Of a stretch of DNA of 64,000 nt, positions 1 through 64,000 are shown in pieces; positions within the stretch are counted from its first letter, which is position 1, and every line of letters begins with the position of its first letter. This DNA is from Dulcicalothrix desertica PCC 7102 (GTDB taxonomy: Bacteria > Cyanobacteriota > Cyanobacteriia > Cyanobacteriales > Nostocaceae). The notes under the pieces were generated by a model. The model saw only the letters and a list, made by a program, of their open reading frames with translations, searched no databases and was not told the origin of the DNA. The stretch covers positions 349,733 through 413,732 of the forward strand of contig NZ_RSCL01000006.1 in assembly GCF_003991905.1 (NCBI RefSeq), read 5' to 3'. The position numbers and the translations under genes were made by a program.

Positions 1-10
1 ACCCTACAGT

Positions 11-1396
11 TTATCGTCCGACACCGATATATTGGAAACCAGCTTTTTCCATATCTTGAGGGTTGAGGAAGTTACGACCGTCAATAATTACAGGGTGGCT
101 CATCAACTTAGCCATTTTGTTATAGTCTAAGGTGATGAATTGTTGCCATTCGGTAACTAGTACCAATGCATCACAACCATCTGCAAGACGTTCAGCGTCA
201 GTTTCTACTAATACGCCCGAAAGACCGTGACGCATTCCGGTTTGAGAAACGATTGGGTCGTATGCTTTAACTTTGGCGCCGAGACGATTGAGTTGTTCGA
301 TTAAATTTAGTGCAGGTGCATCACGTAAGTCATCTGTATCAGGCTTAAATGTTAAGCCGAGTAATCCTACAGTTTTACCTTTAAGAATTTTCAGAGCTTG
401 TTGTAGTTTTTCTAATGCAATTAAACGCTGACGTTCGTTAACGCTAACAGCAGCTTTGAGAAGTTGAGCTTCGTAACCGTAGTCATCAGCAGTGTGAATA
501 AGCGCACTAACATCTTTGGGGAAACACGAACCACCCCAACCAATACCAGCATTGAGGAACTTGCTACCAATACGTGAATCTAAACCAATACCTTTCGCAA
601 CTTGAGTAACATCGGCGCCTACGCGGTCGCAAATGTTAGCAACTTCGTTAATAAAGCTAATTTTGGTAGCTAAGAAGGCGTTAGCGGCATATTTAATCAT
701 TTCTGCCGAACTGAGGTCTGTTGCGAGTACAGGAACAGGGGCAGCAGTTTTATTTTCAGCAAACTGACGCTCGACAATAGGAGCATAAAGTTGCTTCATC
801 AATGCGACTGCTCTTGGACTATTACCACCAAGTACAATTCGGTCGGGGTTGAAAGTGTCATAAACAGCGGAACCTTCGCGCAAGAATTCTGGGTTGCTAA
901 CAACATCGAAGTCTGCAACTTCGGGCAACCTTTCTGCGGGGCCACTACCTGCTGTAACTAATTGTTTTTGACGTTCTGCAAGACCATCCAGAACAATCAT
1001 TCGCACCCAGTCACCTGAACCAATGGGTACTGTTGATTTGTTAACGATTACTTTGTAACCACCATTTAAATTGGCGCCAATGCTGCGGGCAACTGCTTCT
1101 ACATAACGGGTATCACTTTCACCATTAGGTAGTGGAGGTGTACCAACTGCAATGAATAAAATTTCACCGTGTGCAACACCAGCGGCAATATCGGTGCTGA
1201 ACTCAATTCTTCCTGATTGAATTGCACCTTGCATGATTTCAGAAAGCCCCGGTTCAAATATCGGAGACTGACCGGCTTTCATAATTTTGACTTTTTCTTC
1301 GTTATTGTCGATGCACACAACATCATGACCAATATGTGCTAAACAAGCACCTGTAACCAAGCCAACATAACCAGTACCAATTACACAAACACGCAT
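11..1396 (-). CDS. ugd: UDP-glucose 6-dehydrogenase
   Basis: Oxidises UDP-glucose to UDP-glucuronate with two NAD+, feeding exopolysaccharide and nucleotide-sugar synthesis in the cytoplasm. The 461-residue protein has the normal family length. The N-terminal Rossmann motif GTGYVG lies at residues 7-12 and the catalytic cysteine, in the context GGSCFPKD, is about residue 290. The C-terminal UDP-binding domain contains GLTFKPDTDDLRDAP. The gene lies 66 bp downstream of the UDP-glucuronate decarboxylase gene on the same strand, so both are probably co-transcribed and act in sequence (UDP-glucose to UDP-glucuronate to UDP-xylose). Family assignment is secure; the final sugar product is inferred from the pair. 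Confidence 0.96.
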   Translation of the reverse strand: MRVCVIGTGYVGLVTGACLAHIGHDVVCIDNNEEKVKIMKAGQSPIFEPGLSEIMQGAIQSGRIEFSTDIAAGVAHGEILFIAVGTPPLPNGESDTRYVEAVARSIGANLNGGYKVIVNKSTVPIGSGDWVRMIVLDGLAERQKQLVTAGSGPAERLPEVADFDVVSNPEFLREGSAVYDTFNPDRIVLGGNSPRAVALMKQLYAPIVERQFAENKTAAPVPVLATDLSSAEMIKYAANAFLATKISFINEVANICDRVGADVTQVAKGIGLDSRIGSKFLNAGIGWGGSCFPKDVSALIHTADDYGYEAQLLKAAVSVNERQRLIALEKLQQALKILKGKTVGLLGLTFKPDTDDLRDAPALNLIEQLNRLGAKVKAYDPIVSQTGMRHGLSGVLVETDAERLADGCDALVLVTEWQQFITLDYNKMAKLMSHPVIIDGRNFLNPQDMEKAGFQYIGVGR

Positions 1397-1462
1397 TTTC
1401 GTTCAATTCCTATCTTAATTTTGTACAATGAAAGTGAGGTAATATTTAAAACTGTCTTTAGC

Positions 1463-2401
1463 TTAAATAGGCGCATTGCCCATGCGTTTACGGAAATCTT
1501 CTACTGTTAGTTTTAATCCTTCTGCAAGAGGCACAGTAGGTTCCCAATCAAGCAATGTTTTAGCTTTAGTAATGTCAGGACGGCGCCGACGTGGGTCATC
1601 AGAAGGTAAAGGTTCGTGGATTATCTCTGCATTTGGATTAATCATGTCTCTTACCGCTTCTGCTAACTGCAAAATCGTATATTCTCCGGGATTACCAATA
1701 TTTACAGGACCAACATAGTCACTGTTCATTAAGCGAATAAACCCTTCAATCAAATCTGAAGCGTAACAAAAACTACGAGTTTGAGAACCATCGCCGTATA
1801 CAGTTAGAGGTTTACCCTGTAATGCCTGGACAATAAAGTTACTAACAACACGACCATCATTTTCTAACATACGTGGGCCGTATGTGTTAAAAATACGAAC
1901 CACTCGTATATCAACTTTATTCTGACGGTAGTAATCGAATGCTAATGTTTCAGCAATACGCTTACCTTCGTCATAGCAAGCGCGTAAACCGATAGGGTTA
2001 ACATTACCTCTGTACTCTTCGCTTTGTGGATGTACATCAGGGTCTCCGTAGACTTCGCTAGTCGAAGCTAAGAAAAATCTGGCTTTAACGCGCTTCGCTA
2101 GTCCCAACATATTTAAGGTACCCATGACATTCGTTTTCACGGTTTTCACGGGATTGTACTGGTAATGTACAGGAGAGGCAGGGCAAGCCAAGTGGTAAAT
2201 TTGGTCTACCTCCAACCGAATTGGTTCTGTGATGTCGTGGCGAATGAGTTCAAAGTTATGATTATCTAACCATTGCTGGATATTGCGCTTGTTGCCCGTG
2301 TAAAAATTATCCAAACAAATGACTTCATGCCCAGCGGTCATAAGTCTGTCGATAAGATGGGAACCAAGAAACCCAGCTCCGCCCGTCACCAAAATTCTCA
2401 T
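1463..2401 (-). CDS. uxs: UDP-glucuronate decarboxylase (UDP-xylose synthase type)
   Basis: Extended short-chain dehydrogenase that decarboxylates UDP-glucuronate, normally to UDP-xylose. An N-terminal GGAGFLGSH glycine motif is followed by the active-site STSEVYGDP segment and the YxxxK pair (YDEGK). I chose the ATG at 2401 (312 residues) because AGGA precedes it by about six bases and the protein then begins directly with the Rossmann strand. An in-frame ATG at 2428 would add nine residues and has no clear ribosome site. It is the first gene of the pair with ugd. A related epimerase function is possible but less likely, given the UXS-like sequence and the neighbour. Confidence 0.92.
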
Positions 2402-2706
2402 ACTTTTCCTGTGTTTAGAGATATTCACTTCAAGATGCGCTTGTATTTAGGGTACCCAGCACCAACCCAAAAATTCATCACTAACAAAATTTTGTCAGTA
2501 TTTTTTCGCTTACAAGAGCCAATATTTGCTGCCAAGTGAGATTTAGACGTGTCTATCCACTGGTTGTAAATGCCACTTGCAAAATAACAAATATAGCTCG
2601 GTATAAATAAAGGAAAATTAAAGATTCACACAATCTTCAAAAAAACTTAACTTATACTATATGCTGAACTAGCGATAAATAAATGCCAAAAAGTGGTTGA
2701 CAATAC

Positions 2707-2833
2707 AGTGCTGAGTGCTGGGTCCTGAGTGCTGAGTCCTGAGTGGGAAATAACTTCTAACTCCTAACTCCTAACTCCTAACTCCTAACTCTAATCACTA
2801 ACTCAGCACTCAGCACTTTGAACTCAGCACTTA
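2707..2833. repeat. Heptameric STRR array (GCTGAGT and TCCTAAC units)
   Basis: Degenerate GCTGAGT/CCTGAGT copies (about 2709-2748) are followed by TCCTAAC copies (about 2757-2795). The inverted ACTCAGC form then runs up to the antiporter stop codon at 2831. The stretch 2402-2706 ahead of it is AT-rich and I see no gene in it. Confidence 0.85.
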
Positions 2834-4954
2834 TACTACGGCGGTTTTACTTGCCACACCAGCAGTTGCAGTTGCCTCAATACCGCGTTGTGGTTCTCCG
2901 AGCATGACTATTGAGCATGTTAGTTGACGTGCTAACTGTGTTGTCACATCACTGATGCCTAAACCACCTGGTATTGTGTGATTACGTATGAAAGGTAGTA
3001 CAACTAAATCGTAAAGTCGTGCGGCTTGAAGAATTGCTTGTGCGACGTTTTCATGGGCGATAATTTGGACTTCTGGTGGATTAGACAGTGATAGCTTCGA
3101 TACGATTAGTGCTAACTGTGAACGTAATGATGCTATTTTGCTCGAACTTGTACGGCGTTCACATACGTTTAACACTGTTACTTGCGCTTGCAAACCTTCT
3201 GCTAAAATGTGCGCGAAATGCACGGGTTGTAGTACAGGCGCCATTAAATTTTCGACTGGTACTAATATACGCTGAATTTTTCTTGGTGATTCAACTAAGC
3301 GGGTGACGGCAACAGGACAATGTGATGCCCAAAGCACGTTATCTATAACATTTCCAAATAGCTTTGCTCGTATACCAGTACGCTTACCCCATCCCATTAC
3401 TATCAAACTGGCAGTTTGCTCGCGTGCGGCTCTACTTATTCCTTGTGCAAAAGCATCGTCAATACGCAGTAGTGGTTCAGACTCGACGTTAAGAGCTTTT
3501 GAAACAGCGCAAGATTTAGCTAATAATCTTTCACTGCGCTGTAATGATGCTTCTAAACGTGGTGCATCCATTTGCGCGGCAGCTGTTGCAATTGCTAAGG
3601 GTATTATTTTACCATTTGCAACAGATGCCAATAATGCCGCCATTTCAATTAAGTGTTGCTGAGTGTGAGGGTTATATACGGGGACTACAATTGTAAACGG
3701 ATTATTATTTTGATTGACAGATGGATAAACGGGTGCGGCTAAGTGTTTTTTTGCAACAGATGTATTTAAACCTACTGCTGCTCTGCTCGTAATTAATGGG
3801 CCAATTGTTGAAGTTACGAGCATCAAAAGAATAATACTATTAAATATAGATGGAGGTAGTAAGCCTGCTCGATAGCCTACGAGTGTTGCTGCGACAGTGG
3901 CGCCTACTTGTGGTAAAGATAATGACCACATTGTGATTGCTTCTCGCCAGTTATATTGATATAAATATTTTGCTAGTATTGCTGCGACTAATTTACTCAA
4001 GATTAAACCCGCAATAATAAAAGCAGGTAGTTGTAGAGTTGTTATGTTTCGAGTAAACGATGTCAAATCTACTAGTAACCCTAAGTCAACAAAAAAAATC
4101 GGTATAAATAATACACTACCAACAAATACAACTTTTTCTTTAACTGGGCCGTCTGCTAAAGCTTCATTAACTGCCAAACCTGCTAAGAAAGCTCCAACAA
4201 TTTTTTCTATACCTATTAACTGGGCGCCGACCGAAGCAAGAAATACTACCAGTAATACAAATAAAAACTGATGTCCTTCGTCTTCACGTGAGCGTCGAAA
4301 AAATTCTTTCCCTGCCCAATCAAAACCGACTAAAACGACTGTTGCATATATAGTTAACCAGCCAATTAGAGTAATTAAGCTAAAAACGTTAAGCTGACTT
4401 GTGTGAACAGCTATGCATACAGCGAGTAGTAATAGGGCACTAATATCAGTAAAAACAGTGGCACCCATTGTGACTGTAACAGCTTCGTTGTTAGTTACGC
4501 CCAAACGATTAATAATCGGATAAGCGAGCAAAGTATGGGAGGCAAATAATGAACCAATTAATATTGCAGCATTCCAATCAAACCCAAAACTTCTTCCTAC
4601 AGCAGTACCGACAATCATCGGTACACCAAATGTGAAACTACCAAAACCCAATGACCGATTTGCAGTGTGGCGAAACTGATCAATTTCAATCTCAAGTCCA
4701 GCTACAAACATTAGGTACACTAACCCAATATCTGATAGCAGGTTCATGGTTTGCGATTTATCTTGCAAAAAATTCCAACCATGTGGACCTAGTACCATCC
4801 CAGCCAAAAGTAAACCTACTACTCCAGGTAGCCGCAGTCGTTCAAATACAATTGGAACGACCAAAATAACTAGCAGTAAAATAGCAAAAGGAACAATTGG
4901 CTCCTTGCCAAGACCTTGAGATGTTGGTGCAAGTACTTGGGATATTAGTTCCAT
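2831..4954 (-). CDS. CPA2-type cation:proton antiporter with two universal stress domains
   Basis: Membrane Na+/H+ or K+/H+ exchanger of the KefB/CPA2 group, 707 residues. Residues about 15-400 hold some 12 hydrophobic segments. The cytoplasmic half carries two tandem UspA-like domains (about 418-560 and 565-690). The first includes a GxG-type nucleotide loop, MGWGKRTGIRAKLFGN, followed by HCPVAVTR. This antiporter-USP fusion is common in cyanobacteria, and the USP modules may sense nucleotides. The stop codon directly abuts an STRR repeat. The transported ion cannot be told from sequence. It is transcribed alone. Confidence 0.9.
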   Translation of the reverse strand: MELISQVLAPTSQGLGKEPIVPFAILLLVILVVPIVFERLRLPGVVGLLLAGMVLGPHGWNFLQDKSQTMNLLSDIGLVYLMFVAGLEIEIDQFRHTANRSLGFGSFTFGVPMIVGTAVGRSFGFDWNAAILIGSLFASHTLLAYPIINRLGVTNNEAVTVTMGATVFTDISALLLLAVCIAVHTSQLNVFSLITLIGWLTIYATVVLVGFDWAGKEFFRRSREDEGHQFLFVLLVVFLASVGAQLIGIEKIVGAFLAGLAVNEALADGPVKEKVVFVGSVLFIPIFFVDLGLLVDLTSFTRNITTLQLPAFIIAGLILSKLVAAILAKYLYQYNWREAITMWSLSLPQVGATVAATLVGYRAGLLPPSIFNSIILLMLVTSTIGPLITSRAAVGLNTSVAKKHLAAPVYPSVNQNNNPFTIVVPVYNPHTQQHLIEMAALLASVANGKIIPLAIATAAAQMDAPRLEASLQRSERLLAKSCAVSKALNVESEPLLRIDDAFAQGISRAAREQTASLIVMGWGKRTGIRAKLFGNVIDNVLWASHCPVAVTRLVESPRKIQRILVPVENLMAPVLQPVHFAHILAEGLQAQVTVLNVCERRTSSSKIASLRSQLALIVSKLSLSNPPEVQIIAHENVAQAILQAARLYDLVVLPFIRNHTIPGGLGISDVTTQLARQLTCSIVMLGEPQRGIEATATAGVASKTAVV

Positions 4955-5121
4955 AGGTTGGTGTTTGGCAGGAGTGAAATGAAGAAAGCAGAGAATGTTT
5001 TCCTAATTACAAAGCTGACGCTTTTTTAATGAGTATTGTTGCTTTTATATTCTTTATATAAGGAAATAGTATTTTTAATGACAATTTGCGCCCTAATATG
5101 ATAACCGCAGTTACCTATTGC

Positions 5122-5775
5122 TTATATATGAATTTGACTCAATATATATTTTAAACGGTCGTAATCGTCTTTGAGTAATATACTTAGAGTTCGACCCGCT
5201 TTAACTAACCATTCACGGTCAGCCTTGCGTAGTTGAAACACTTCGCGAATCGCCGCTGCCGTCAAAGAATCGATAGGGGCGCCGTTTATAGTTAAAAGAG
5301 TTCGTAAAAAGTCCATTTCCTCTGAAAATCGTATTATTGCATCGGATTCGCAGCGATAAACAGCCTGATGAATTTGTGGGGGACGAGGTGGTAAGTACTG
5401 ATAGACAGCACCGTTTGAATTATTAGTTTTTGGCTGCTCAAACCCGATAATTGCGGCACGAAACTCTGTTTTAAGCATAGCAAAAATTTGGGGTTGTTCC
5501 TCACGTAAATCAGCGAGTGACATACCCAAAGCGCGCGCACGATGCACTGAGTCTATTGGCATGGTGGTGGCGTGATAAACAACAGCGTATATTTGATTGC
5601 CAGATTCCTCATCTTGTGATTTTACCCAGCTACCGAATGGGGGCATTGGGGGAAAGCTCAAATCATCTGGTTCTAAACACTGAGCTAAAATTTCTGTTGT
5701 TGTTGTCTCTATGACTTCGGCGATGTGATTTTCATCACGGTTACTGCGATTGAATTGTGGTAAAGGAAGGCGCAT
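5122..5775 (-). CDS. HAS-barrel domain protein, cyanobacterial
   Basis: About 217 residues from the ATG at 5775. An in-frame ATG at 5808 would add a hydrophobic 11-residue stretch, and neither start has a strong ribosome site. The central part (FGSWVKS, then VYHATTMPIDSVHRARALGMS) resembles the HAS-barrel proteins conserved across cyanobacteria. In other proteins HAS barrels sit at the N-terminus of HerA-type ATPases, but no ATPase domain is present here. Molecular role unknown. No signal peptide if the shorter start is used. The assignment rests on resemblance recalled from the family, not on a search. Confidence 0.6.
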   Translation of the reverse strand: MRLPLPQFNRSNRDENHIAEVIETTTTEILAQCLEPDDLSFPPMPPFGSWVKSQDEESGNQIYAVVYHATTMPIDSVHRARALGMSLADLREEQPQIFAMLKTEFRAAIIGFEQPKTNNSNGAVYQYLPPRPPQIHQAVYRCESDAIIRFSEEMDFLRTLLTINGAPIDSLTAAAIREVFQLRKADREWLVKAGRTLSILLKDDYDRLKYILSQIHI

Positions 5776-5868
5776 AGTCTTGAAAATTATAAATATAAAC
5801 CCTAACATCTCATATTTATAATTTAATACGGATGTTTTGGTTTTTTATATATTAATCTGGCGCCTGTG

Positions 5869-5997
5869 ATTGGGGCGGGTCTCGGGGTGGGTTTTGATTG
5901 GGGCGGGTTTAAATTGGGACGGGTTTCGGGGTGGGTTTCGGGGCGGGTTTAGCGATATCGTTATTAATAACGGAAATCTCGGTTAACCCGCCCCTAC
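5869..5997. repeat. GGGGCGGGTTT direct repeats closed by the inverse complement
   Basis: About six imperfect copies of GGGGCGGGTTT or GGGGTGGGTTT in head-to-tail order are followed, after a short AT spacer, by the inverse form AACCCGCCCCTA. The array can fold into alternative hairpins. It ends immediately downstream of the ndhS stop codon. A related array lies at 21645-21760. Confidence 0.8.
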
Positions 5998-6001
5998 AGT
6001 A

Positions 6002-6196
6002 TCATTTTCCTTTTTTGCGCCCTGCGGTTTCTACGGCTTCTAATTCCGATAAACGGAATGTGATTAATTTATCCCAATTACCACCCTCGAACAAAACGGC
6101 AACTTTACCATCGCTGACTCGTTGAACTAATCCTTCAAAGCGATAGTAGGTATCTGCAGGGTTTTTTACGCGAACGGTTGCTCCAGGCAGAATCAT
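6002..6196 (-). CDS. ndhS: NAD(P)H-quinone oxidoreductase subunit S
   Basis: Small 64-residue SH3-like subunit of the photosynthetic NDH-1 complex on the thylakoid cytoplasmic face. NdhS is known to help dock ferredoxin, the electron donor for cyclic electron flow. The protein begins [13 protein letters not shown], and its core ([22 protein letters not shown]) matches the cyanobacterial NdhS pattern across its whole length. It ends with a basic tail, RKKGK. It stands alone, downstream of rodA on the same strand, with a GGGGCGGG repeat directly after the stop. Confidence 0.88.
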
Positions 6197-6259
6197 GGCT
6201 TTTACTCTTTTTATGGTTGGTTTCCTTTATATAGCTTAATGCTTGTTGGGCGAAGCGTA

Positions 6260-6302
6260 AAAACTCCTAACTCCTAACTCCTAACTCCTAACTCCTAACT
6301 CC
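6260..6302. repeat. STRR array TCCTAAC x5-6
   Basis: Uninterrupted TCCTAAC heptamers. The last copy overlaps the 3' end of rodA and supplies its stop: the final codons TGG AGT TAG read straight into the GGAGTTA repeat on the minus strand. Confidence 0.9.
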
Positions 6303-7608
6303 AATATTTCTTTTTGGTTCGGAAGTTGGCGACTGATTCGACAATACCTAGGGATACAAAATTTGTTACCATTGCTGAACGTCCGTAGCTCATCCAAGGT
6401 AATGGTATTCCCGCTACTGGCGCCAGTCCAACGTTCATACCTACGTTTACTATTACTTGGAACACAATCATTGCTAAGACTCCAATTGCTAGGAGTGAAC
6501 CAAAATTATCTTTGGCTGTTTGAGCAATATGTAGTAAGCGTAAGCAAAGGAAAGCAAAGACTGAAAGCAATATCAAGCAACCAATAAAGCCAAACTCTTC
6601 ACCTACTGCAGAGAATATAAAGTCTGTATGTTGTTCAGGCACGAAATTCAACTGTGTCATCGGACCCTTGTTTAATCCCCATCCTAGCCACTCCCCGGCG
6701 CCGATGGCAATCCGTGATTGGTGTTGGTGATACCCAGTTGTTAACAGGTTTTGGTCGGGATTTAAAAATGATGTTAAGCGCCCTTTTTGATATTCTTTTA
6801 AAACGTGATTCCAAAGGAAAATACCTATTTCCCCACCTAGCATATTAAGTGCCCAGGCGCCGATTCCACTTACACCAAATCGTTTCCAAGGCAAAGTACG
6901 CCACCCAACAATACCCATTGCTACTGCCCAAATTAACCCCAAGGGACCAAATACCAAATCCTTGGAAAAGGCAATTGTAAAGGGCCATTGAATACTAAAT
7001 AATATCGCGGCAATAATTGGTGAAACCATTAGTACTAACCAACCTGGATTCGCATTTGCCCAGTACAACATCCCTAAGACAATTGCTCCGAACACTAACG
7101 ATGTCGCCAAGTCAGGTTGAATGAAAACTAATGCCCAAGGAATTGCGGTAAATGCCATCGCACGGAAAACGCTAGATAAATTCGATGCTGTAGTTTTATG
7201 TAATAGCGCCGCCAAAGTAATAATCATCGCCAATTTGGCAAATTCTGACGGTTGTACAGGTACACCAGCAATATTAATCCACCTTTGTGCCCCTTTTGCG
7301 CTTTTACCGATAATCATTACCGCAACAAGACTGATATTGACTGCGGTATATATATACCAGTGATACTCAAGTAGATTTTCGTAGCGTACACGAGCAATAA
7401 TTAATGCAACACAGGCGCCGATTATAGAGACTATCCAGTGCCACCACCAATCTATCAAACCTTGGCTTAACTCGGTGCTGCGAATCATTAAGCCACCGAA
7501 AAAACTGACACCTACTACAACGAAGAACAATAGCCAGTCGATTTGCTGCCAAGGTTTAATCCAATACTTCCAGCGTGATTGGGAGCGCGAACTCTTTTTT
7601 AATAACAT
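6295..7608 (-). CDS. rodA: Rod-shape peptidoglycan glycosyltransferase RodA
   Basis: SEDS-family polytopic membrane enzyme that polymerises lipid II during cell elongation, usually with a class B PBP. It has 437 residues with about ten membrane helices starting near residue 23. The family signature is visible in INIAGVPVQPSEFAK, the loop EQHTDFIFSAVGEEFGF, and the C-terminal GIPLPWMSYGRSAM. The longer loop near WNHVLKEYQKGRLTSFLNPDQN is the usual periplasmic segment. FtsW would be the alternative, but PSEFAK and VPEQHTDFIFS fit RodA. Its last three codons and stop lie in an STRR heptamer. Confidence 0.93.
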   Translation of the reverse strand: MLLKKSSRSQSRWKYWIKPWQQIDWLLFFVVVGVSFFGGLMIRSTELSQGLIDWWWHWIVSIIGACVALIIARVRYENLLEYHWYIYTAVNISLVAVMIIGKSAKGAQRWINIAGVPVQPSEFAKLAMIITLAALLHKTTASNLSSVFRAMAFTAIPWALVFIQPDLATSLVFGAIVLGMLYWANANPGWLVLMVSPIIAAILFSIQWPFTIAFSKDLVFGPLGLIWAVAMGIVGWRTLPWKRFGVSGIGAWALNMLGGEIGIFLWNHVLKEYQKGRLTSFLNPDQNLLTTGYHQHQSRIAIGAGEWLGWGLNKGPMTQLNFVPEQHTDFIFSAVGEEFGFIGCLILLSVFAFLCLRLLHIAQTAKDNFGSLLAIGVLAMIVFQVIVNVGMNVGLAPVAGIPLPWMSYGRSAMVTNFVSLGIVESVANFRTKKKYWS

Positions 7609-7740
7609 TGTACGATTTTAGACTTTAGCTTTATAGATTTTAAATTTAGTCGCCACTAAAAATCTGTATTCCCAGGTATCACCTGAGAACCAGAATGAAA
7701 ATATTTTATTTTTTTATGCCAAAACTGTAACATCCCACAC

Positions 7741-7862
7741 AGAAACCGGGCTTCTTGTTATAAATTATGCTAAAAATTCTAGTTTGTTACAAAGAAGCCC
7801 GGTTTCTTGAAAGCAACTTTATGCTAAAAATTCTAGTTTGTTACAAAGAAGCCCGGTTTCTT
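7741..7862. repeat. 42-bp direct repeat x2 with an inverted partner
   Basis: Two identical 42-bp copies (7767-7808 and 7821-7862) end in AAGAAGCCCGGTTTCTT and are spaced 54 bp apart. An inverse copy, AGAAACCGGGCTTCTT, sits at 7741-7756. The second copy ends inside the apbC stop codon. Related AAGAAACCCGGTTTC elements occur at 49808-49986. Confidence 0.9.
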
Positions 7863-55857: not shown

Positions 55858-55886
55858 TCCCCCCAACCCCCCTCGATTTCGGGGGG

Positions 55887-56771: not shown

Positions 56772-56773
56772 TT

Positions 56774-56824
56774 AATAAGTTAGGAGTTAGGAGTTAGGAG
56801 TTAGGAGTTAGGAGTTAGGAGTTA
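56774..56824. repeat. STRR array GTTAGGA x6
   Basis: Six GTTAGGA units in the LysR leader region, only a few bases from its start codon. Here the array is at a gene 5' end, unlike most copies. Confidence 0.9.
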
Positions 56825-56967
56825 ATGAATGGAAGATTAGCGTTAGTAATATTTTTTATATATTAATAAACAGTGAAAAATATATTGGACATTAATTTAT
56901 ATATTACCTACTCTTGTAGATACAAGCAGCGTCTACGGCGCCACATAGAAATATAGGAATTAAATTT

Positions 56968-57708
56968 ATGCTTCAAAATACTTGGAACCCAACCCTTTAC
57001 GAGGGTAAACATGCGTTTGTCTGGCAATATGGTGAAGATTTACTCAACTTACTGTCCCCGCAATCTGGGGAAAGAATTTTAGATGTTGGCTGCGGTACAG
57101 GGCAACTCACTGCAAAAATAGCAGATACAGGCGCCATAGTAACAGGAATAGACGCTGATGCAGCAATGGTGGAAAAAGCAAAGCTGAATTATCCGAATTT
57201 AGAATTCACAGTAGCAGACGCGCGCTCATTCCAATTTGATACAGAATTTGATGCCGTATTTTCAAATGCGACGTTGCATTGGATACCAGAAGCAGAAGCA
57301 GTAATAAGTTCTATTTACCGTGCTTTAAAGCCTGGAGGTCGCTTTATTGCAGAATTTGGTGGTAAAGGTAACGTCAAATTAATTACAGATGCCCTCTACC
57401 AAGCCTTAGAAATTAAATCCCCATCATCTTGGTACTTTCCCAGCATTGGAGAATATACGACTCTATTAGAAAAGCAGGGTTTTGATGTTACCTATGCAGT
57501 ACTATTCAACCGTCCAACACCTTTACCTGATGGAGAAGCAGGTTTAAGAAATTGGTTGATGATGTTCGCAAGTAGATTTTTGGCTAACTCTACACAGCAA
57601 GAAGTAATCAAAACAGTAGAAGAACAACTTAAACCTATTTTATATAAAAACGGTACTTGGACGGCTGATTATAGGCGCCTGCGAATTATTGCTATGAGGG
57701 AAAGTTAA
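56968..57708 (+). CDS. Class I SAM-dependent methyltransferase
   Basis: 246 residues. Motif I ILDVGCGTGQLTAKIA, motif II GIDADAAMVEKA, and FSNATLHWIPEAEAVISSIYRALKPGGRFIAEFGG identify a UbiE/trans-aconitate-methyltransferase-like enzyme for a small molecule. Substrate not determinable. Its stop codon overlaps the next ATG by one base (TAATG), so translation is coupled to the TSUP permease. Confidence 0.9.
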   Translation: MLQNTWNPTLYEGKHAFVWQYGEDLLNLLSPQSGERILDVGCGTGQLTAKIADTGAIVTGIDADAAMVEKAKLNYPNLEFTVADARSFQFDTEFDAVFSNATLHWIPEAEAVISSIYRALKPGGRFIAEFGGKGNVKLITDALYQALEIKSPSSWYFPSIGEYTTLLEKQGFDVTYAVLFNRPTPLPDGEAGLRNWLMMFASRFLANSTQQEVIKTVEEQLKPILYKNGTWTADYRRLRIIAMRES

Positions 57709-58454
57709 TGCTATCTAATTTATTCTTATTTATCGTAGCTGTAATAGCAGGCGCCATGAATGGTGTTGCAGGTGGAGGAGGGTTAATTGCATTTCCAGCA
57801 TTAATGTTCGTTGGAATTCCACCAATACCAGCAAATGCGACGAACACAGCAGCAATGTGGGTGGGAACTGCTGCTTCGACATTTGCTTACCGTCAAGATA
57901 TGTCAATTCGTCGGTGGGAATTTTTCACACTGACTGTAGCAAGCGTTTTAGGAGGAACTATTGGTTCATATATACTGTTAAATACTCCCTCTAAAAGCTT
58001 TGCTGGTTTAATTCCATATTTAATGCTAACTGCCACATTACTATTTGCATTTGGTAAGCGAATTAATAGCTGGTTGCAAAATCGTTTTAAATTACCAATG
58101 TGGTTAGTAATTATCTTTCAATTCCTGATTGCTATATATGGAGGTTTTTTTGGTGGCGGTGGTGGTATTGTTATACTAGCTATTTTAGAAATGATGGGTG
58201 TTAAAAGTATTCATACGATGAATGCTGTAAAAAGCTGGCTAGCAACAACTTTAAACGCTTGCGCTTTACTTTATTTTATGAAAGCAGGCATTATTGTGTG
58301 GTCAAGTGCGATTTTGATGGCAGTTGGTGCTTTAATTGGTGGATATAGCAGTGCTTTCTTCGCGCGTAAGGTCAGTTCAGTATGGGTACGTAATTTTATT
58401 ACGTGTATTGGAGTTTCCATAACTAGCTACTTCTTTTTATTTCCAGCAAAATGA
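57708..58454 (+). CDS. TSUP (TauE/SafE) family permease
   Basis: 248 residues with about seven to eight membrane helices. The duplicated TSUP signature is seen as GAMNGVAGGGGLIAFPALMFVGIPPIPANATNT and again as GGFFGGGGGIVILAILEMMG..MNAVKSWLATTLN. Members export sulfite, sulfoacetate or related organosulfur anions. It overlaps both neighbours by 1 and 4 nt. Confidence 0.92.
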   Translation: MLSNLFLFIVAVIAGAMNGVAGGGGLIAFPALMFVGIPPIPANATNTAAMWVGTAASTFAYRQDMSIRRWEFFTLTVASVLGGTIGSYILLNTPSKSFAGLIPYLMLTATLLFAFGKRINSWLQNRFKLPMWLVIIFQFLIAIYGGFFGGGGGIVILAILEMMGVKSIHTMNAVKSWLATTLNACALLYFMKAGIIVWSSAILMAVGALIGGYSSAFFARKVSSVWVRNFITCIGVSITSYFFLFPAK

Positions 58455-58996
58455 CATTAAACCAAGCACAGCTAAAAGAAATACTTCTGAATTCTCCTGT
58501 TAGTGAAGTATTGCCAGCTATCGCAGAACTTCAACTTCCTAACTGGTGGTTAGCAGGTGGCGCCGTTCGTAATACAGTTTGGCGCTTTCTATTTGGTGAT
58601 GATTGTAAATTAGTTATTAAAGACTTTGATATTGCTTTCTTTGATGATAAAGGAGAACGTTCTCAAGAACTTGGCGCCAAAGAAGCTTTAGCAAACCAAT
58701 TTCCTAACTATATATTTGATGTAAAAAATCAGGCTAGCTTTGCAAGGTGGCGTAATGGGCGCCAGACTTTTGAGAGTACAGAAGATGGTATTAGTAAGTG
58801 GTTACATACTGCTACTGCGGTAGGGGTGCGAGTGGATAGTGAGGGGGAATGGGAATTTTTTACACCTTATGGGCTAGATGATTTGTTTAATGGTGTAATT
58901 CGTCCGACTCCTATACATATGAATAATGTTGATGCAAGTAATAAGGCTGCTAGTTTTTTAGAAAAATGTCCAGCTTTAAAAAATATTGTCTTGTAG
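58451..58996 (+). CDS. Nucleotidyltransferase family protein (PF06042-like)
   Basis: 181 residues. The N-terminal LPNWWLAGGAVRNTVWRFLFG and IKDFDIAFFDD form the GGxxRN..DxD pattern of the NTP_transf_6 family of DNA polymerase beta-like nucleotidyltransferases. Substrate unknown. ATGA overlap with the TSUP gene indicates coupling. The stop TAG abuts the palindrome GCACAGGCTTCTAGCCTGTG at 58996. Confidence 0.82.
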   Translation: MTLNQAQLKEILLNSPVSEVLPAIAELQLPNWWLAGGAVRNTVWRFLFGDDCKLVIKDFDIAFFDDKGERSQELGAKEALANQFPNYIFDVKNQASFARWRNGRQTFESTEDGISKWLHTATAVGVRVDSEGEWEFFTPYGLDDLFNGVIRPTPIHMNNVDASNKAASFLEKCPALKNIVL

Positions 58997-59085
58997 CACA
59001 GGCTTCTAGCCTGTGCAGTCACAAAACAGTATATAAAATTTTTTACCACAGAGACACGTAGAGACGCGATTTATAGCGTCTCTAC
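58996..59085. repeat. Two palindromes: family F (58996-59016) and family D copy 3 (59058-59085)
   Basis: GCACAGGCTTCTAGCCTGTG plus C is a near-perfect 21-bp palindrome. Downstream, after a TTACCACAGAGACAC half-element like that at 48181, follows GTAGAGACGCGATT and its slightly imperfect inverse. Confidence 0.85.
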
Positions 59086-59098
59086 AGAGGGATATTTA

Positions 59099-59551
59099 TT
59101 AAATAGCCCGCCATTCCTGAGCATCTATGAACTGTGATAGATGACCTACGTTAGTTGTTGCAATTACCACTTTATACCCTTCATTTTCTAGTAATATTGC
59201 TTGTGCGGCTAAAATTACATCACCATCTAATGCCGAAGGTTCTGCTGTTGGTCTTCCTCTAAGTCTTGCTTCTGCCCATAACTGAGCGGCTAAAAGCATT
59301 GTTTCTGTTGTGAGTGAAAGGTATGGAATTTGTAACTTCAGTCTATCTAGGCGCCTAATACTTTTTATTTTACCAACACGTAATAATTCACGTCTAACCT
59401 CATAATCAGTAATTTCAGGGAGCATAACTGTATAATTTTTCTGTGGCAAAGTATTGAACCACAATTTACATTCCTGAACTTCTATGGAAGATGCTTTTGG
59501 ATTTGTCACCATTCCCAAAGGCCCGGAGTCGAGCAATACAACTTGACTCAT
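59099..59551 (-). CDS. PIN-domain toxin (VapC-like)
   Basis: 150 residues. Acidic PIN positions are visible: LLDSGPLG (Asp8), EITDYEVRREL, and LDGDVILAAQAI, then VIATTNVGHLSQF near the end. PIN toxins are Mg-dependent RNases, often cutting tRNA or rRNA. The ATG overlaps the stop of the upstream antitoxin-like gene by 4 nt, the usual toxin-antitoxin arrangement. Confidence 0.87.
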   Translation of the reverse strand: MSQVVLLDSGPLGMVTNPKASSIEVQECKLWFNTLPQKNYTVMLPEITDYEVRRELLRVGKIKSIRRLDRLKLQIPYLSLTTETMLLAAQLWAEARLRGRPTAEPSALDGDVILAAQAILLENEGYKVVIATTNVGHLSQFIDAQEWRAI

Positions 59552-59886
59552 GGGAATAATGGTCTATTAGAAAGACGATCTTCATCTAACGCTTTACGAA
59601 GAAATTCCCAAGTTTCTGTTTGTTCTTGTTCATCGTCATCTTCTTCTTCCCACTCTTGCATTAACTGGCTCAAAGCCTCATGTTGCTTCACAGGGTCAAA
59701 TTTTTCAAGTTCTTCCTGACTAAGTAGGCTTTTCGCTGAGGTTTTTATGGCTGTTTGGGTTAACCCTCTAACCTCTAGTGCTTTAAGTAAATGTTGATAA
59801 TCGTTAAAATCTATTACTACCTTACGAATATTCCCTTGAGTATCGGTAATCAGTTCTTGGGCAAATGGATATTTATCTGCTTGCAT
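59548..59886 (-). CDS. Antitoxin-like partner of the PIN toxin
   Basis: 112 residues, strongly acidic in the C-terminal half (EWEEEDDDEQEQTETWEFL). The N-terminus FAQELITDTQGNIRKVVIDFNDYQHLLKALE resembles Phd/YefM-like or DUF-type antitoxin starts in cyanobacteria. The role is assigned mainly from the 4-nt overlap with the PIN gene. Confidence 0.78.
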   Translation of the reverse strand: MQADKYPFAQELITDTQGNIRKVVIDFNDYQHLLKALEVRGLTQTAIKTSAKSLLSQEELEKFDPVKQHEALSQLMQEWEEEDDDEQEQTETWEFLRKALDEDRLSNRPLFP

Positions 59887-60042
59887 AAAAGCTACACTTT
59901 TAAATTATTAGTACAAAGATAGCATAAATTCGATTCTTCTAGGTGAAACTGACGGACAGTCGGGGTTGACAGCGCTCAGGTAACAAACAAATACTTTGGA
60001 TTTGATTAAATCGCTTGACATGCAACTAAAAGGTTGCATATA

Positions 60043-60357
60043 ATGAGAAACATGGATGCAGTGTTTAAAGCCCTTGCCGATCCGAGTCGGAGAAAGTTGC
60101 TCGACCAGTTGTATGCCCATAATGGACAAACATTAAACGAACTGTGCGAATACCTTGACATGACGCGGCAAGCCGTGACAAAACATCTGACGCTACTAGA
60201 GGCCGCAAATCTGGTTGTCGTCGTCTGGCATGGCCGAGAAAAACTGCATTACCTTAACGCAGTACCGATTCAGGAGATTTACGATCGCTGGCTGAGTAAA
60301 TACGAACGCCCTCAACTAGATGCATTGAGTCAATTAAAGCGAAATCTCGAAGGTTGA
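60043..60357 (+). CDS. ArsR-family transcriptional regulator
   Basis: 104 residues from ATG 60043 (AAAAGG about eight bases before). The winged helix MDAVFKALADPSRRKLLDQLYAHNGQTLNELCEYLDMTRQAVTKHLTLLEAANLV is complete. No metal-binding cysteine pair is present, so it is of the SdpR-like kind commonly paired with an AHSA1/SRPBCC gene, which follows 27 bp later. GC and word usage differ from the rest of the window. Confidence 0.9.
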   Translation: MRNMDAVFKALADPSRRKLLDQLYAHNGQTLNELCEYLDMTRQAVTKHLTLLEAANLVVVVWHGREKLHYLNAVPIQEIYDRWLSKYERPQLDALSQLKRNLEG

Positions 60358-60384
60358 CAACTAGAAACACCAAGGAGACTAAAC

Positions 60385-60814
60385 ATGAATAAACCCACCT
60401 TCGTTTACGTGACCTATATTGCGACCACGCTCGAACAACTTTGGGAAGCAATCGTCAGTGAAGAATTCACCCAGCAGTATTGGTCTGGCGGGCAACTTGA
60501 GTCTGACTGGCAGGTGGGTTCATTCGTGCAGCATATCAACCAGGACGGCGAGACCGAAAGCATTGGGGAAGTATTGGAATCCCAGGCGCCGCAACTACTT
60601 TCTTATACCTTTGGCTCATCCAATGTAACTGGAACTGCGCCATGTCACGTCCGCTTCAAGCTGGAGCAGTACGGGCCTAGAGTGAAGCTAACGCTAATTC
60701 AAACGGCTCTTGATGTTCAAAGCAGCATGAACCATGAGCTACAGATGGAAGAAGAGCGTATCCTACCTCAAGCGCCTGTTAGAAATCGAAGATGTATTGG
60801 CATTAGTAGCTTAA
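60385..60814 (+). CDS. AHSA1/SRPBCC protein, probable frameshift near the C-terminus
   Basis: As sequenced, one frame runs to 60846 (153 residues) but ends in an atypical basic stretch VRNRRCIGISSLKFCRK. Shifting frame at about 60740 gives RWKKSVSYLKRLLEIEDVLALVA-stop at 60814. That is the helix ending expected for the family and a normal length of about 142 residues. The span of 430 nt has one extra base. Its front part (TFVYVTYIATTLEQLWEAIVSEEFTQQYWSG) is a clear AHSA1 start. Co-transcribed with the ArsR gene and probably regulated by it. Confidence 0.8.
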
Positions 60815-60902
60815 AATTCTGTCGCAAACTGGTAATGGGCAATTAATAATCGATTAAAAGTTCCATTACCCAATCGTCCACTTCATTGGAGAACTCCACA
60901 TT

Positions 60903-61514
60903 ATGATTCCTACCGTAATTGAACAATCGAGTCGGGGTGAAAGAGCCTTCGACATTTACTCTCGCTTACTGCGAGAACGGATTATTTTTTTAGCAGAAGC
61001 CATCGACTCGGATACGGCTAACCGAATTGTGGCGCAAATGCTGTTTTTAGAAGCAGAAGACCCCCAAAAGGATATTTATCTGTACATCAATTCTCCTGGT
61101 GGTTCTGTGGTAGCAGGTTTAGGCATTTATGACACGATGAACCATATTCGTCCAGATGTTTGCACGATTTGCTATGGCATGGCAGCTAGTATGGGCGCCT
61201 TTTTGCTCGGTGCGGGTGCTAAAGGCAAGCGCAGCAGTTTACCGAGTTCGCGGATTATGATTCACCAGCCTTCCGGTGGAGCGCAGGGGCAGGCAGTGGA
61301 TATCGAGATTCAAGCCAAGGAAATTATCTACCTGAAACGGCAGATCAATGAGCGGATGGCTAACTATACGGGGAAATCTCATGAGCAAATTGAGCTTGAC
61401 ACCGACCGAGACTTCTTTATGTCGGCACAAGAGGCAGTGGAGTATGGCTTGGTAGATCGGGTCATCGAGCGCCCAACTCTGACGATTCATCCCGAACTAA
61501 TAGCGACAAGATAA
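60903..61514 (+). CDS. clpP: ATP-dependent Clp protease proteolytic subunit
   Basis: 203 residues. The catalytic triad is present: Ser96 in [10 protein letters not shown], His121 in [10 protein letters not shown], and Asp170 in DTDRDFFMS. The handle region [19 protein letters not shown] is intact, as is N-terminal [22 protein letters not shown]. Cyanobacteria carry several clpP genes; there is no clpX or clpR neighbour here. A DUF4440 gene overlaps the stop by one base (TAATG). Local GATC content suggests a segment of different history. Confidence 0.95.
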
Positions 61515-61891
61515 TGGATAATCAAATTGAGCATCAAATCATCGAGGCAGAAGAAAAGCTCAGGCTGGCAATGCTTAACTCTGATGTGAAAGCACTAGAT
61601 GAACTGCTATCATCTCGATTAATTTTTACAAACCACCAGGGACATTTGGTAAGTAAAGAGGAGGATTTAGCTGGTCACAAATCGGGCGCCCTTAAACTCA
61701 ACTCGTTGTTAGCTTCCGAGCAGCATATTTTATTAACAGGTGATGTAGCGATAGTCTCAGTAAAAATGCAACTATCGGGCAGCTACAATGACACACCTAC
61801 AAATGGCATTTTTCGTTTTACCAGGGTTTGGTCTCATTCTGGGGAAGGAACTTGGCAGATTATAGCTGGGCATTCAGGTATAGTGTCCTAG
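61514..61891 (+). CDS. DUF4440 / SnoaL-like (NTF2 fold) protein
   Basis: 125 residues: EEKLRLAMLNSDVKALDELLSSRLIFTNHQGHLVSKEEDLAGHKSG, later IFRFTRVWSHSGEGTWQIIAGHSG, the standard DUF4440 pattern. NTF2-like folds bind small ligands or act as simple enzymes; role unknown. The 1-nt overlap with clpP implies translational coupling, an uncommon partner. Confidence 0.85.
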   Translation: MDNQIEHQIIEAEEKLRLAMLNSDVKALDELLSSRLIFTNHQGHLVSKEEDLAGHKSGALKLNSLLASEQHILLTGDVAIVSVKMQLSGSYNDTPTNGIFRFTRVWSHSGEGTWQIIAGHSGIVS

Positions 61892-61970
61892 CGCCTCTTT
61901 TCAAAACGATGCTGTTGGGATCGCGAGCTATGTTCGATTGGTTAGAGTAGTCCAAGAAATAAATTATCCC

Positions 61971-62035
61971 GTAGGGTAGGCGTCTCGCCTGTCCTACAAT
62001 ATTTTATGGGCAGGCGAGATGCCTACCTTACAATA
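61971..62035. repeat. REP-like palindrome family E
   Basis: GTAGGGTAGGCGTCTCGCCT and the inverse AGGCGAGATGCCTACCTTAC, separated by about 20 bp. It has the same design as families A and B but a different core. The rest of the 61892-62156 gap contains the tacA promoter region. Confidence 0.85.
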
Positions 62036-62156
62036 GTCTTGTTTAACTTCCGTTAGGGAAAAATGGGCTTCTGGGTGCGACCGCATTTAAATAGATTGCA
62101 GTTTTAACTAATTGGGTGTACATTGGGAATACAGAGAGAACTATAGGAGGAAAATC

Positions 62157-62438
62157 ATGTTTGAGGCAGCAGCGGCTACGCCAAAAGAAACGCGGCTTTC
62201 CATTCGCGCAACGGAGCAGGAAAAGGCAATACTGGCAGAAGCGGCACGAGTCCAGCACACGAATGTAAGCAAGTTTGTCCTGCAAGCATCGCTTGATGCT
62301 GCAAATGCTATTCTTATGTATCAAACAGAGTTTTCTTTGCCGCCCGACCAGTGGGAAGCGTTCTGTGAACGTCTTGACGCGCCGCCGAAAGTCATTCCAG
62401 AATTAGAGCGGCTTTTTAGCGAATCAGAACCGTTCTAA
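62157..62438 (+). CDS. tacA: DUF1778 (TacA-like) antitoxin
   Basis: 93 residues from ATG 62157, preceded by AGGAGG. The ribbon-helix-helix start ETRLSIRATEQEKAILAEAARVQHTNVSKFVLQASLDAA is typical of DUF1778, and the C-terminal PPDQWEAFCERLDAPPKVIPELERLF is the toxin-wrapping part. It pairs with the GNAT toxin gene 32 bp downstream. By family precedent the complex represses its own promoter. The gene has no GGCGCC and higher GC than most of the window. Confidence 0.92.
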   Translation: MFEAAAATPKETRLSIRATEQEKAILAEAARVQHTNVSKFVLQASLDAANAILMYQTEFSLPPDQWEAFCERLDAPPKVIPELERLFSESEPF

Positions 62439-62470
62439 TGTAAGGAATGTAAGAAACTGGAATTGTTTTA

Positions 62471-62986
62471 ATGCAAAGTGAGCCTTTAAATGAGCCTATT
62501 CTGCTTGCCAAAAGTCATATCATTGCGGATTTTGATTGTGGCAAACTGCCACTTAATGATTTCCTGATTAAATATGCTTTGCAAAATCAGGCAAGCGGGG
62601 GAGCCAGAACCTATGTCCTGACTTGCGCCGAGCGCGTCATTGGCTATTACAGTCTTGCTCCGGCATCCGTATCGCCGGACGATGTGCCTGCTCGCGTCAT
62701 GAAAGGGCAGGGGCGTTATCCCGTCCCGGTTATCCTTATGGCGCGGTTTGCCATAGACAAAGGTGAACAGGGAAAAGGCTTAGGTAAAGCCATGTTCCGC
62801 AACGCACTACGCCGCTCTCTGGCGGGGGCTGAAACTATTGGCGGTCGAGCTTTTCTTGTCCATGCTAAAGACGACGAAGCCCGCGCGTTTTACCTCAAAT
62901 TCGGCATGGAAGAATCTCCAACCAATCGCCTGCACTTGCTTTTGCTTTTCAAAGATATTCGACAATCACTTGAAGCCGCAGGTTAA
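62471..62986 (+). CDS. tacT: GNAT toxin, TacT-like (acetylates aminoacyl-tRNA)
   Basis: 171 residues. Acetyl-CoA loop QGKGLGKAMFRNALRR, preceded by VPVILMARFAIDKGEQ; the C-terminal ARAFYLKFGMEESPTNRLHLLLLFKDI includes the catalytic tyrosine (AFYLKFG). TacT-type toxins block translation by acetylating charged tRNAs. GC content near 50% suggests recent acquisition with tacA. Confidence 0.92.
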   Translation: MQSEPLNEPILLAKSHIIADFDCGKLPLNDFLIKYALQNQASGGARTYVLTCAERVIGYYSLAPASVSPDDVPARVMKGQGRYPVPVILMARFAIDKGEQGKGLGKAMFRNALRRSLAGAETIGGRAFLVHAKDDEARAFYLKFGMEESPTNRLHLLLLFKDIRQSLEAAG

Positions 62987-62994
62987 GTTTTCAA

Positions 62995-63016
62995 CGCAGA
63001 AATTTTGATTTCTGCG
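62995..63016. terminator. Hairpin after tacT
   Basis: CGCAGAAAT and ATTTCTGCG form a 9-bp perfect stem with a TTTG loop, ten bases after the tacT stop. No T run follows, so intrinsic termination is uncertain. A second small stem, CCGCTAC/GTAGCGG, lies near 63056-63080. Confidence 0.55.
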
Positions 63017-63288
63017 ATGTGCTAATTTTGAATCTATTTAAAGCGTGCCCACTCACCGCTACTTAAATCTCGTAGCGGAGGTAAATCTAAGAGGGTATTT
63101 ATAAAGTAAATCTTAAGAACAGTGAGCAGTAATTTTGTACGAGACATAATCAAGCACACTCAGTAGCGCATTATTGGGGAAAAAACCGACAGTTTTATTT
63201 TGACGCTTTAAAAAAAAGATTAAAATCTTGGATAGTAAAAAGGTTACAGCTATTATGATTATGTAACATAATCATGTGGATGTATCCA

Positions 63289-63708
63289 ATGAGTAAAGCG
63301 AAAAAAACTAAAAAATCTAAGTCTGACTGGGGAGGATATAGACTGAATGCAGGCAGGAAAGCAACTTGGAATAATGAAGAAACTTGCACTATTCGTATTC
63401 CCAAAGCTTTGTCCAACGAAATTTTAAGGTTTGCGCGAGCTTTGGATTCAGGGGAGATAATTGAATTTGTAACAGAATCAAATTGGTCTGAAGACGAAAA
63501 TCATGATTACGTAACAGATTCAAATTTTAATTATCAGCAAAGCATTTCAGGCAACTTTGATTTTGCAACAGAATCAAAATTAGAAAATGTAAATGCGTCT
63601 ACCGTTTTTGATGAGATTGAAAGCTACCTCAACAATCTTGATAATGTAACAGAATCAAATGCACGATGGATACCAATGCCAGATTTTGATGAAGCAATAC
63701 AGATATAG
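63289..63708 (+). CDS. Hypothetical protein with repeated VTESN motif
   Basis: 139 residues from ATG 63289. The N-terminus SKAKKTKKSKSDWGGYRLNAGRKATWNNEETCTIRIPKALSNEILRFARALDSG has the basic GRKxxWN..TxTIRIP pattern of small cyanobacterial proteins that may be ribbon-helix-helix-like. The remaining part is acidic and carries four copies of (V/A)T(E/D)S(N/K), each encoded by a near-identical 14-mer (G(T/C)AACAGAATCAAA at 63469, 63511, 63565 and 63646). Function unknown. Confidence 0.68.
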   Translation: MSKAKKTKKSKSDWGGYRLNAGRKATWNNEETCTIRIPKALSNEILRFARALDSGEIIEFVTESNWSEDENHDYVTDSNFNYQQSISGNFDFATESKLENVNASTVFDEIESYLNNLDNVTESNARWIPMPDFDEAIQI

Positions 63709-63741
63709 CAGTCCTACATGATTTGTAAAAATTATAACCCT

Positions 63742-63769
63742 GTAGAGACGCGATTAATCGCGTCTCTAC
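63742..63769. repeat. 28-bp palindrome family D, copy 4
   Basis: GTAGAGACGCGATT followed by its exact inverse complement, the same sequence as inside the atzE-like gene. The remaining bases to 64000 hold an AGGGAGGAGT purine run at about 63940 but no start codon follows in frame, so no gene is called. Confidence 0.9.
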
Positions 63770-64000
63770 GACGTGCGGATTTACCTTCGGTACACTTCGT
63801 GAACACAAATGATTTAGGATTGCTATAGCAAGAAAAATAGTCAAACAAAAAAAGTGCGCCCGCATATCCGTGGCACGACTGATATCCAAGTTATATTCAG
63901 TACAAGTAAATGCTAATGCCTTAAAACCATATAGGGAGGAGTAACATTTAACACACAAGACTATTTAACATTAATCTAACCATTGCGGCATATATTATTG

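What the first reader, a model, noticed from the sequence alone, without database searches (positions are those of the whole stretch)
1..64000. GGCGCC behaves like a replacement for the HIP1 palindrome, and GATC is nearly absent
By eye I count about 120 GGCGCC sites, roughly one per 0.5 kb, inside genes on both strands and spread evenly until about 61.7 kb. At about 40% GC only around four are expected by chance. Over the first 59 kb I noticed only about nine GATC sites against some 200 expected, and no GCGATCGC (HIP1). Most cyanobacteria have HIP1, which contains GATC and is linked to a GATC-type methyltransferase. This genome seems to have moved to a different iterated palindrome while purging the old core, implying a different methylase or repair bias.
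Basis: partly seen in the sequence, partly recalled or inferred. Interest (0 to 1): 0.72.

Follow-up and report, generated by a model that had tools for sequence, protein, structure and literature searches.

The report
Swapped genome-wide methylation word in Calothrix
This cyanobacterium has lost the eight-letter DNA word that almost all its relatives repeat thousands of times and repeats GGCGCC instead; this swap was already described in one Calothrix strain, and here it proves to be shared by its whole genus and to coincide with two particular DNA-modifying enzyme systems.

Summary
Observation confirmed almost to the letter: 122 GGCGCC (dinucleotide-shuffle mean 6.4), 15 GATC (mean 143; 9 in the first 59 kb), no HIP1. 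Genome: 19,393 GGCGCC in 11.4 Mb, 58 HIP1. The phenomenon is in print: Elhai 2015 (PMC4390886) reported GGCGCC as an 'alternate HIP' in Calothrix PCC 7103, with GATC depletion and GrCGyC methyltransferases. The window belongs to an unnamed species of that genus.
How GGCGCC spread (selection or biased repair) is inferred, not shown. There is one origin, so the enzyme association rests on a single event.

The parts
275..61690 (.). 122 GGCGCC sites (palindromic), first 275-280, last 61685-61690; 105 inside non-overlapping ORFs of at least 100 aa, 17 outside
1..59000 (.). GATC-purged stretch: 9 GATC in 59 kb, no GCGATCGC
37188..41808 (-). two psaA/psaB-type photosystem I core genes (741 and 752 aa) carrying six GGCGCC sites (38244, 38997, 39087, 40325, 40612, 41252): the word sits inside highly conserved genes
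59551..64000 (.). accessory end of the window: 6 of the 15 GATC, 3 GGCGCC (none after 61,690); no match from about 60 kb in the HK-06 and C42 stretches held, patchy in NIES-4105, missing after 62 kb in PCC 7716 (FI2-JRJ7 not held here), so probably later acquired

Best explanation
GGCGCC is the methylated 'alternate HIP' of one Calothrix genus. Step 1 (genes shown, causation inferred): a DpnII-type GATC restriction-modification system, present in all 7 genomes, purged GATC and with it HIP1 and CGATCG. Step 2 (genes shown, specificity by homology): a BsaHI/HgiDI/HindVP-type cytosine methyltransferase is kept without its nuclease at a fixed chromosomal site, so GRCGYC sites would be methylated and not cut. 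Step 3 (footprint shown, methylation inferred): the inner C, GG(m5C)GCC, mutates to T about 2.4 times as fast as the same trinucleotide elsewhere. Step 4 (inferred): in a genome whose HIP1 slot is empty, GGCGCC rose on the stem of the genus to about one per 0.6-0.9 kb and is held there by weak selection on the methylated sites, because losses appear on tips but rarely persist.
For: Genus-wide swap: GGCGCC 1,150-1,711 per Mb in 7 of 7, at most 111 per Mb in 210 others; 30 sites in the 204-kb block are GGCGCC in both deep species and the agreeing rest. DpnII nuclease next to its Dam-family methyltransferase, open in 7 of 7 (Pfam run on 4 of the 7 nucleases); GATC O/E 0.07-0.18 in the six genomes. 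Methyltransferase F1a: 7 of 7; syntenic and without a nuclease beside it in the 6 genomes where the place is whole; HindVP nuclease (PF09519) 0 of 7 against 43 of 210. In relatives the partner carries the BsaHI-family motif SPERRFD (9 of the 11 loci that have it; SPERRLD in the other 2). Relatives with both enzymes have least GGCGCC: median 0.71 per Mb (n 39) against 5.07 (n 151, neither), P 8e-7, not corrected for kinship. C3-to-T 57 of 1,284 against 132 of 7,107 at GCG elsewhere, P 1.8e-7; C5 and C6 not raised; M.BsaHI methylates that central C. Turnover: at deeply shared sites tip loss 24/217 against 24/320 in other GC-only hexamers, stem loss 3/55 against 26/99, Fisher P 4.5e-4.
Against: One origin, so enzymes and word are associated once. 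F1 without HindVP occurs in 16 other family genomes (3 of them with F1 broken or in pieces) without a takeover, and their GGCGCC density does not differ from genomes with neither enzyme (P 0.35); all 16 keep HIP1. G194, with no F1 match, still has 326 GGCGCC against control 9. Over all sites, not only deeply shared ones, tip loss of GGCGCC (102/841) is only a little below that of GC-only hexamers (254/1,746). Gains are very rare (4 of 249 one-off chances), so the process that created the sites is not seen acting strongly. Loss on the long C42 branch (36/88) is close to controls (67/140) and cannot be polarised without an outside outgroup. Tips could instead show recent relaxation; short inner branches argue weakly against that (1 loss in 168, GC-only hexamers 10 in 354). 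No methylation was measured.
Confidence: 0.5

Rival explanations
1. Elhai's model: same enzymes, but GGCGCC accumulates as a by-product of mismatch repair steered by G-m5C, a mutational ratchet that stops near one site per kb; the word itself need have no function.
For: Density of 1,150-1,711 per Mb is of the order of the predicted set point; methylation at the inner C, which the model requires, fits the footprint and M.BsaHI; one-off words turn into GGCGCC 4 times against 0.93 expected (P 0.015); takeover seen only where HIP1 is gone.
Against: The postulated G-m5C nicking enzyme is unidentified and was not sought here. A saturated ratchet does not by itself explain why tip losses fail to appear on older branches. 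Elhai argued from alternate HIPs being sporadic and not persisting; here one persists through a genus. His second methyltransferase copy is not needed: G000 and C42 have one F1 match each.
Confidence: 0.3
2. Very-short-patch-type repair: a Vsr-like nickase restores T:G mismatches at methylated GGCGCC and builds up the word, as at Dcm sites.
For: Most observed losses are C3-to-T (64 of 102).
Against: Vsr (PF03852) in 0 of 11 genomes, 7 of 7 genus members included, while the control rings in E. coli. The T product GGTGCC is not depleted: O/E 1.18 in G000 against 0.41 in an outgroup pool.
Confidence: 0.04
3. GGCGCC is a DNA-uptake signal under selection during natural transformation.
For: Dense, palindromic, inside and outside ORFs and on main and smaller contigs.
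Against: No long motif: the base before the six is T 41, A 35, C 30, G 16 of 122; the word tracks enzyme content and HIP1 loss; uptake itself was not testable.
Confidence: 0.05
4. Composition or codon-usage artefact (GGC GCC, Gly-Ala).
For: 163 of 310 coding sites are in the Gly-Ala frame.
Against: Order-2 Markov expectation 5.9 against 122; the reversed word CCGCGG occurs once in the genome; density outside ORFs is 0.96 per kb over 204 kb, about 18 times the 20.9 per 400 kb expected by composition.
Confidence: 0.01

Closest known systems
Alternate HIP GGCGCC of Calothrix PCC 7103 (Elhai 2015, PMC4390886)
   Same: Same word, HIP1 lost, GATC depleted with a GATC nuclease gene, GrCGyC-type methyltransferase present, other GRCGYC words depleted; PCC 7103 is G060 here (HIP1 14 per Mb in both).
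   Different: Here in 7 genomes of one genus including the unnamed window genome; methyltransferase shown solitary and syntenic; a second copy not required; methylated base and site turnover read from mutations.
HIP1 (GCGATCGC) of most cyanobacteria
   Same: Dense iterated palindrome, about one per kb, tied to solitary methyltransferases (Elhai 2015).
   Different: Different sequence with no GATC; HIP1 itself is near background in this genus.
BsaHI / HgiDI / HindVP restriction-modification systems (GRCGYC; PMC2413257)
   Same: Methyltransferase family; relatives' partner nuclease with PF09519 and the SPERRFD motif.
   Different: In this genus the nuclease is missing (0 of 7) and GGCGCC is enriched instead of avoided.
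DpnII-type GATC restriction-modification
   Same: PF04556 nuclease beside a TIGR00571 (dam family) methyltransferase, GATC strongly avoided.
   Different: Present in every genome of a genus whose relatives carry GATC-containing HIP1.

Membership tests
Alternate HIP (Elhai 2015) | a GC-rich palindrome other than HIP1 is the most over-represented word | tested here: met
Alternate HIP (Elhai 2015) | HIP1 rare or absent | tested here: met
   58 in 11.4 Mb, control 62
Alternate HIP (Elhai 2015) | a methyltransferase able to methylate the word is encoded | tested here: met
   F1a 7 of 7 by homology; family specificity from recognition-domain motif, partner nuclease and site avoidance in relatives; activity not tested
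Alternate HIP (Elhai 2015) | the word is methylated in the cell | not testable with these tools
   only an indirect C-to-T footprint
HIP1 | GCGATCGC strongly over-represented | tested here: not met
BsaHI/HindVP-type R-M system | m5C methyltransferase of the GRCGYC family | tested here: met
BsaHI/HindVP-type R-M system | cognate nuclease PF09519 present | tested here: not met
   0 of 7 genus genomes
DpnII-type GATC R-M system | Dam-family methyltransferase adjacent to PF04556 nuclease, both open | tested here: met
   7 of 7
VSP repair | Vsr endonuclease gene | tested here: not met
   0 of 11 genomes
DNA uptake sequence | longer motif with conserved flanks | tested here: not met
   no strongly preferred flanking base
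DNA uptake sequence | promotes uptake | not testable with these tools
   needs transformation assays

The most novel reading that the evidence does not exclude
A whole bacterial lineage exchanged its genome-wide methylated palindrome as a unit: a GATC restriction system erased the old mark, an orphaned GRCGYC methyltransferase supplied a new one, and the new mark took over the old one's still unknown job and is kept by purifying selection. What cyanobacteria need would then be a dense G-m5C mark, not the HIP1 sequence.
Probability: 0.3. Interest if true: 0.8.

Novelty: new member of a known kind. Interest (0 to 1): 0.5.

Why it matters
The function of HIP1 is a long-standing open question. A genus that replaced it, with seven genomes held and named isolates among them (PCC 7103, PCC 7716), is a natural experiment: remove the solitary methyltransferase and see what fails. 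The family genomes sort as a rough factorial. F1 without nuclease but HIP1 intact: no takeover (16 genomes). HIP1 low without F1: none (G182, G194, G184). HIP1 low with F1 and nuclease: none (G191). HIP1 gone with solitary F1: takeover in 7 of 7, one origin. Persistence through a genus also weakens one of Elhai's two arguments that only HIP1 itself is functional.

Tried and rejected
Vsr-type repair: no gene and no deficit of GGTGCC. Uptake sequence: no long motif. Even spacing as a hallmark of function: P 0.01 in 64 kb, gone over 204 kb. Ongoing decay: the first tip counts (101 losses, 3 gains) suggested simple erosion; the comparison with older branches did not fit permanent loss. One search's background was contaminated by GGCGCC itself (GCG context) and was replaced. 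mis-read the strand of some loci and was replaced. A note (entry 6) says 12 of 26 loci carry HindVP; recounted it is 11 of 26 plus one 63-aa remnant (L221). G420 (order level, 2,493 GGCGCC against control 38) might be a second case; the three contigs fetched were 6 kb in all and were not analysed. Orthologous outgroup DNA, to read which words became GGCGCC on the stem, was not obtained.
Full report
OBSERVATION. The window holds 122 GGCGCC (dinucleotide shuffles: mean 6.43, none of 100 reaching 122) and 15 GATC (mean 143), 9 of them in the first 59 kb, and no GCGATCGC. Order-1 to order-3 Markov models expect 6.6, 5.9 and 22.2 GGCGCC. Genome-wide there are 19,393 GGCGCC in 11.4 Mb against 1 CCGCGG and 58 GCGATCGC against 62 for its control.

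WHAT IS KNOWN. Elhai 2015 (PMC4390886; I saw the abstract and outline, sections 2.5, 3.5 and 4.2, part 1 of 2 of section 3.4, and passages) described exactly this word as the 'alternate HIP' of Calothrix PCC 7103 and of fragments of Calothrix D253. There GATC is at 16% of expectation, a possibly active GATC nuclease is encoded, two GrCGyC methyltransferases are present, and the CGATCG methyltransferase is truncated. He wrote that exceptional HIPs occur sporadically, not in clades. In the listings of my paper searches I found no later report on GGCGCC as a HIP; the library holds open-licence papers only. Xu and others 2018 on HIP1 selection is not held; I saw only a sentence about it in PMC6604393 (passages).

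WHOSE GENOME. The window's genome G000 is unnamed and falls beside PCC 7716 in a tree of 64,425 aligned columns.

A GENUS TRAIT. GGCGCC in 217 family genomes: all 7 of the genus have 7,475-20,380 (1,150-1,711 per Mb; controls 1-8). The other 210 have at most 111 per Mb, and the highest of these has an equal control (G084: 1,053 against 1,270). HIP1 is 3.6-22.6 per Mb in the 7; among the 210 the lowest are G182 (9), G194 (50), G191 (82) and G184 (104), all others at 200 or more. Among 386 genomes drawn across the phylum (G000 the only one of its genus in the draw), the only other genome with over 1,000 sites and more than ten times its control is G420, 2,493 against 38, not analysed further. 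Stretches of smaller contigs of PCC 7716, NIES-4105 and PCC 7103 share the word (1.1-3.5 per kb).

WHY GATC IS GONE. Every one of the 7 genomes has a Dam-family methyltransferase (TIGR00571, E 3e-83 for the G000 copy) directly followed by a DpnII-family nuclease (PF04556, E 1.5e-95 for the G000 copy), without stops and 84-100% identical to the G000 proteins (Pfam was run on the nucleases of 4 of the 7). That these families act on GATC is recalled knowledge. GATC is 0.07-0.18 of expectation in the six genomes and similarly low in the two HK-06 loci. HIP1 and CGATCG contain GATC and fell with it (CGATCG 2 against 55 expected). G194 suggests that the purge alone does not bring GGCGCC to genus level: GATC 5 against 284 expected in 80 kb, HIP1 50 per Mb, no F1 match, GGCGCC 30 per Mb (though 326 against control 9).

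WHICH METHYLTRANSFERASE. PF00145 gives 9-17 matches, some of them fragments, per genus genome. Clustering 59 of these hits found families present in all 7; one, F1, is of the type of BsaHI/HgiDI/HindVP enzymes. F1a is in 7 of 7 at 81-100% identity (HK-06 has a whole copy at 83% and two pieces at 94-95% at contig ends). In the 6 genomes where the place is whole it sits between a RuBisCO-like-protein gene and an SLH-domain gene (families identified in G000; the others by their matching starts; the SLH frame is short in FI2-JRJ7), with no nuclease beside it. Of the 26 loci, 11 carry a HindVP-family nuclease directly beside F1, one of them (C. elsteri) in two frames, plus one remnant; none of these is in the genus. 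Nine of the 11 bear the exact SPERRFD motif and two SPERRLD; Neely and Roberts report SPERRFD as specific to BsaHI homologues (PMC2413257, parts 1-3 of 4 read). HindVP is in 0 of 7 genus genomes and 43 of 210 others, one of these under the cut-off; of 55 F1-bearing outgroup genomes 39 also have it, several of either gene in pieces or with stops. Genomes with both have the fewest GGCGCC: median 0.71 per Mb (n 39) against 5.07 with neither (n 151, P 8e-7) and 8.5 with F1 alone (n 16, P 2e-4), which is what a nuclease cutting GRCGYC would cause. F1 alone does not differ from neither (P 0.35). These tests ignore kinship. In the tree F1a of the genus is one clade (100/99), grouped (91/85) with copies from Calothrix CSU_2_0 and C. 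elsteri, which sit beside the nuclease gene. A second F1 copy, which Elhai thought might be critical, is lacking in G000 and C42 (one match each).

FOOTPRINT OF METHYLATION. In 204 kb of G000 aligned to six genus-mates, C-to-T at the inner C of GGCGCC on tip branches is 57 of 1,284 against 132 of 7,107 at GCG elsewhere (odds ratio 2.45, P 1.8e-7). At the two outer C's it is 8 of 1,265 and 9 of 1,154, not raised. M.BsaHI methylates the central C. GGTGCC/GGCACC stands at 1.18 of expectation in G000 against 0.41 in an outgroup pool. Together these point to GG(m5C)GCC. This is an inference; nothing was measured.

TURNOVER. Pooling four blocks: on bracketed tips 102 of 841 GGCGCC were lost (GC-only hexamers 254 of 1,746) and 4 of 249 one-off words became GGCGCC (0.93 expected, P 0.015). 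At sites shared with both deep species, tip loss is 24/217 (11.1%) against 24/320 (7.5%) for other GC-only hexamers and 451/10,937 (4.1%) for hexamers with four G or C. Stem loss is 3/55 (5.5%) against 26/99 (26%) and 661/2,988 (22%). Fisher P is 4.5e-4 against GC-only hexamers and 8e-7 against all with four or more G or C. On the NIES-4105 branch loss is 9/61 against 22/95. Short inner branches: 1 loss in 168, GC-only hexamers 10 in 354. So the word mutates fast but its losses seldom persist. Weak purifying selection explains this most simply; active re-creation or a recent change of rules is not excluded. On the longest branch (C42) loss is 36/88, close to controls (67/140), which without an outside outgroup cannot be split into losses there and gains elsewhere.

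VERDICT. The swap is real, genome-wide and genus-wide. It is a new member, indeed a whole clade, of Elhai's alternate-HIP kind. The likeliest account is a GATC restriction purge plus a solitary GRCGYC methyltransferase. How GGCGCC multiplied, by selection or by methylation-steered repair, is open, and the genus makes it testable.

Noticed in passing
L243 (G000:C7:22001-37000) and L244 (G000:C25:96001-103000): Islands in the window's genome with HIP1 (7 in 15 kb, 5 in 7 kb), GATC O/E 0.86 and 0.52 and few or no GGCGCC in their middle: probably DNA taken recently from HIP1-bearing cyanobacteria; the two words mark foreign DNA.
   Followed up: partly
window 1-64000: GGCC is also strongly avoided (20 against 104 expected by composition; O/E 0.07-0.20 in six genus genomes); cause not sought.
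   Followed up: no
window 2751-2804, 6262-6302, 28103-28141, 56778-56824 and others: Short tandem repeats of period 7 (TAACTCC, GAGTGCT types) in several places, and separate 12-29 bp repeats with GGGGCGGGTTT.
   Followed up: no
G420 (same order, 6.2 Mb): 2,493 GGCGCC against control 38, a possible second and weaker rise of the same word.
   Followed up: no
L147:6171-8266, L037:5804-7902, L083:1384-3476: A second Dam-family methyltransferase beside a 378-379 aa protein, in two places in G000 and one in PCC 7103; the L147 copy has no Pfam or NCBIfam match: candidate unknown nuclease.
   Followed up: partly
G076-G079 (one genus of the family): F1 without HindVP and GGCGCC 3-29 times its control, yet only 20-43 per Mb with HIP1 intact: perhaps an early or blocked stage.
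   Followed up: no
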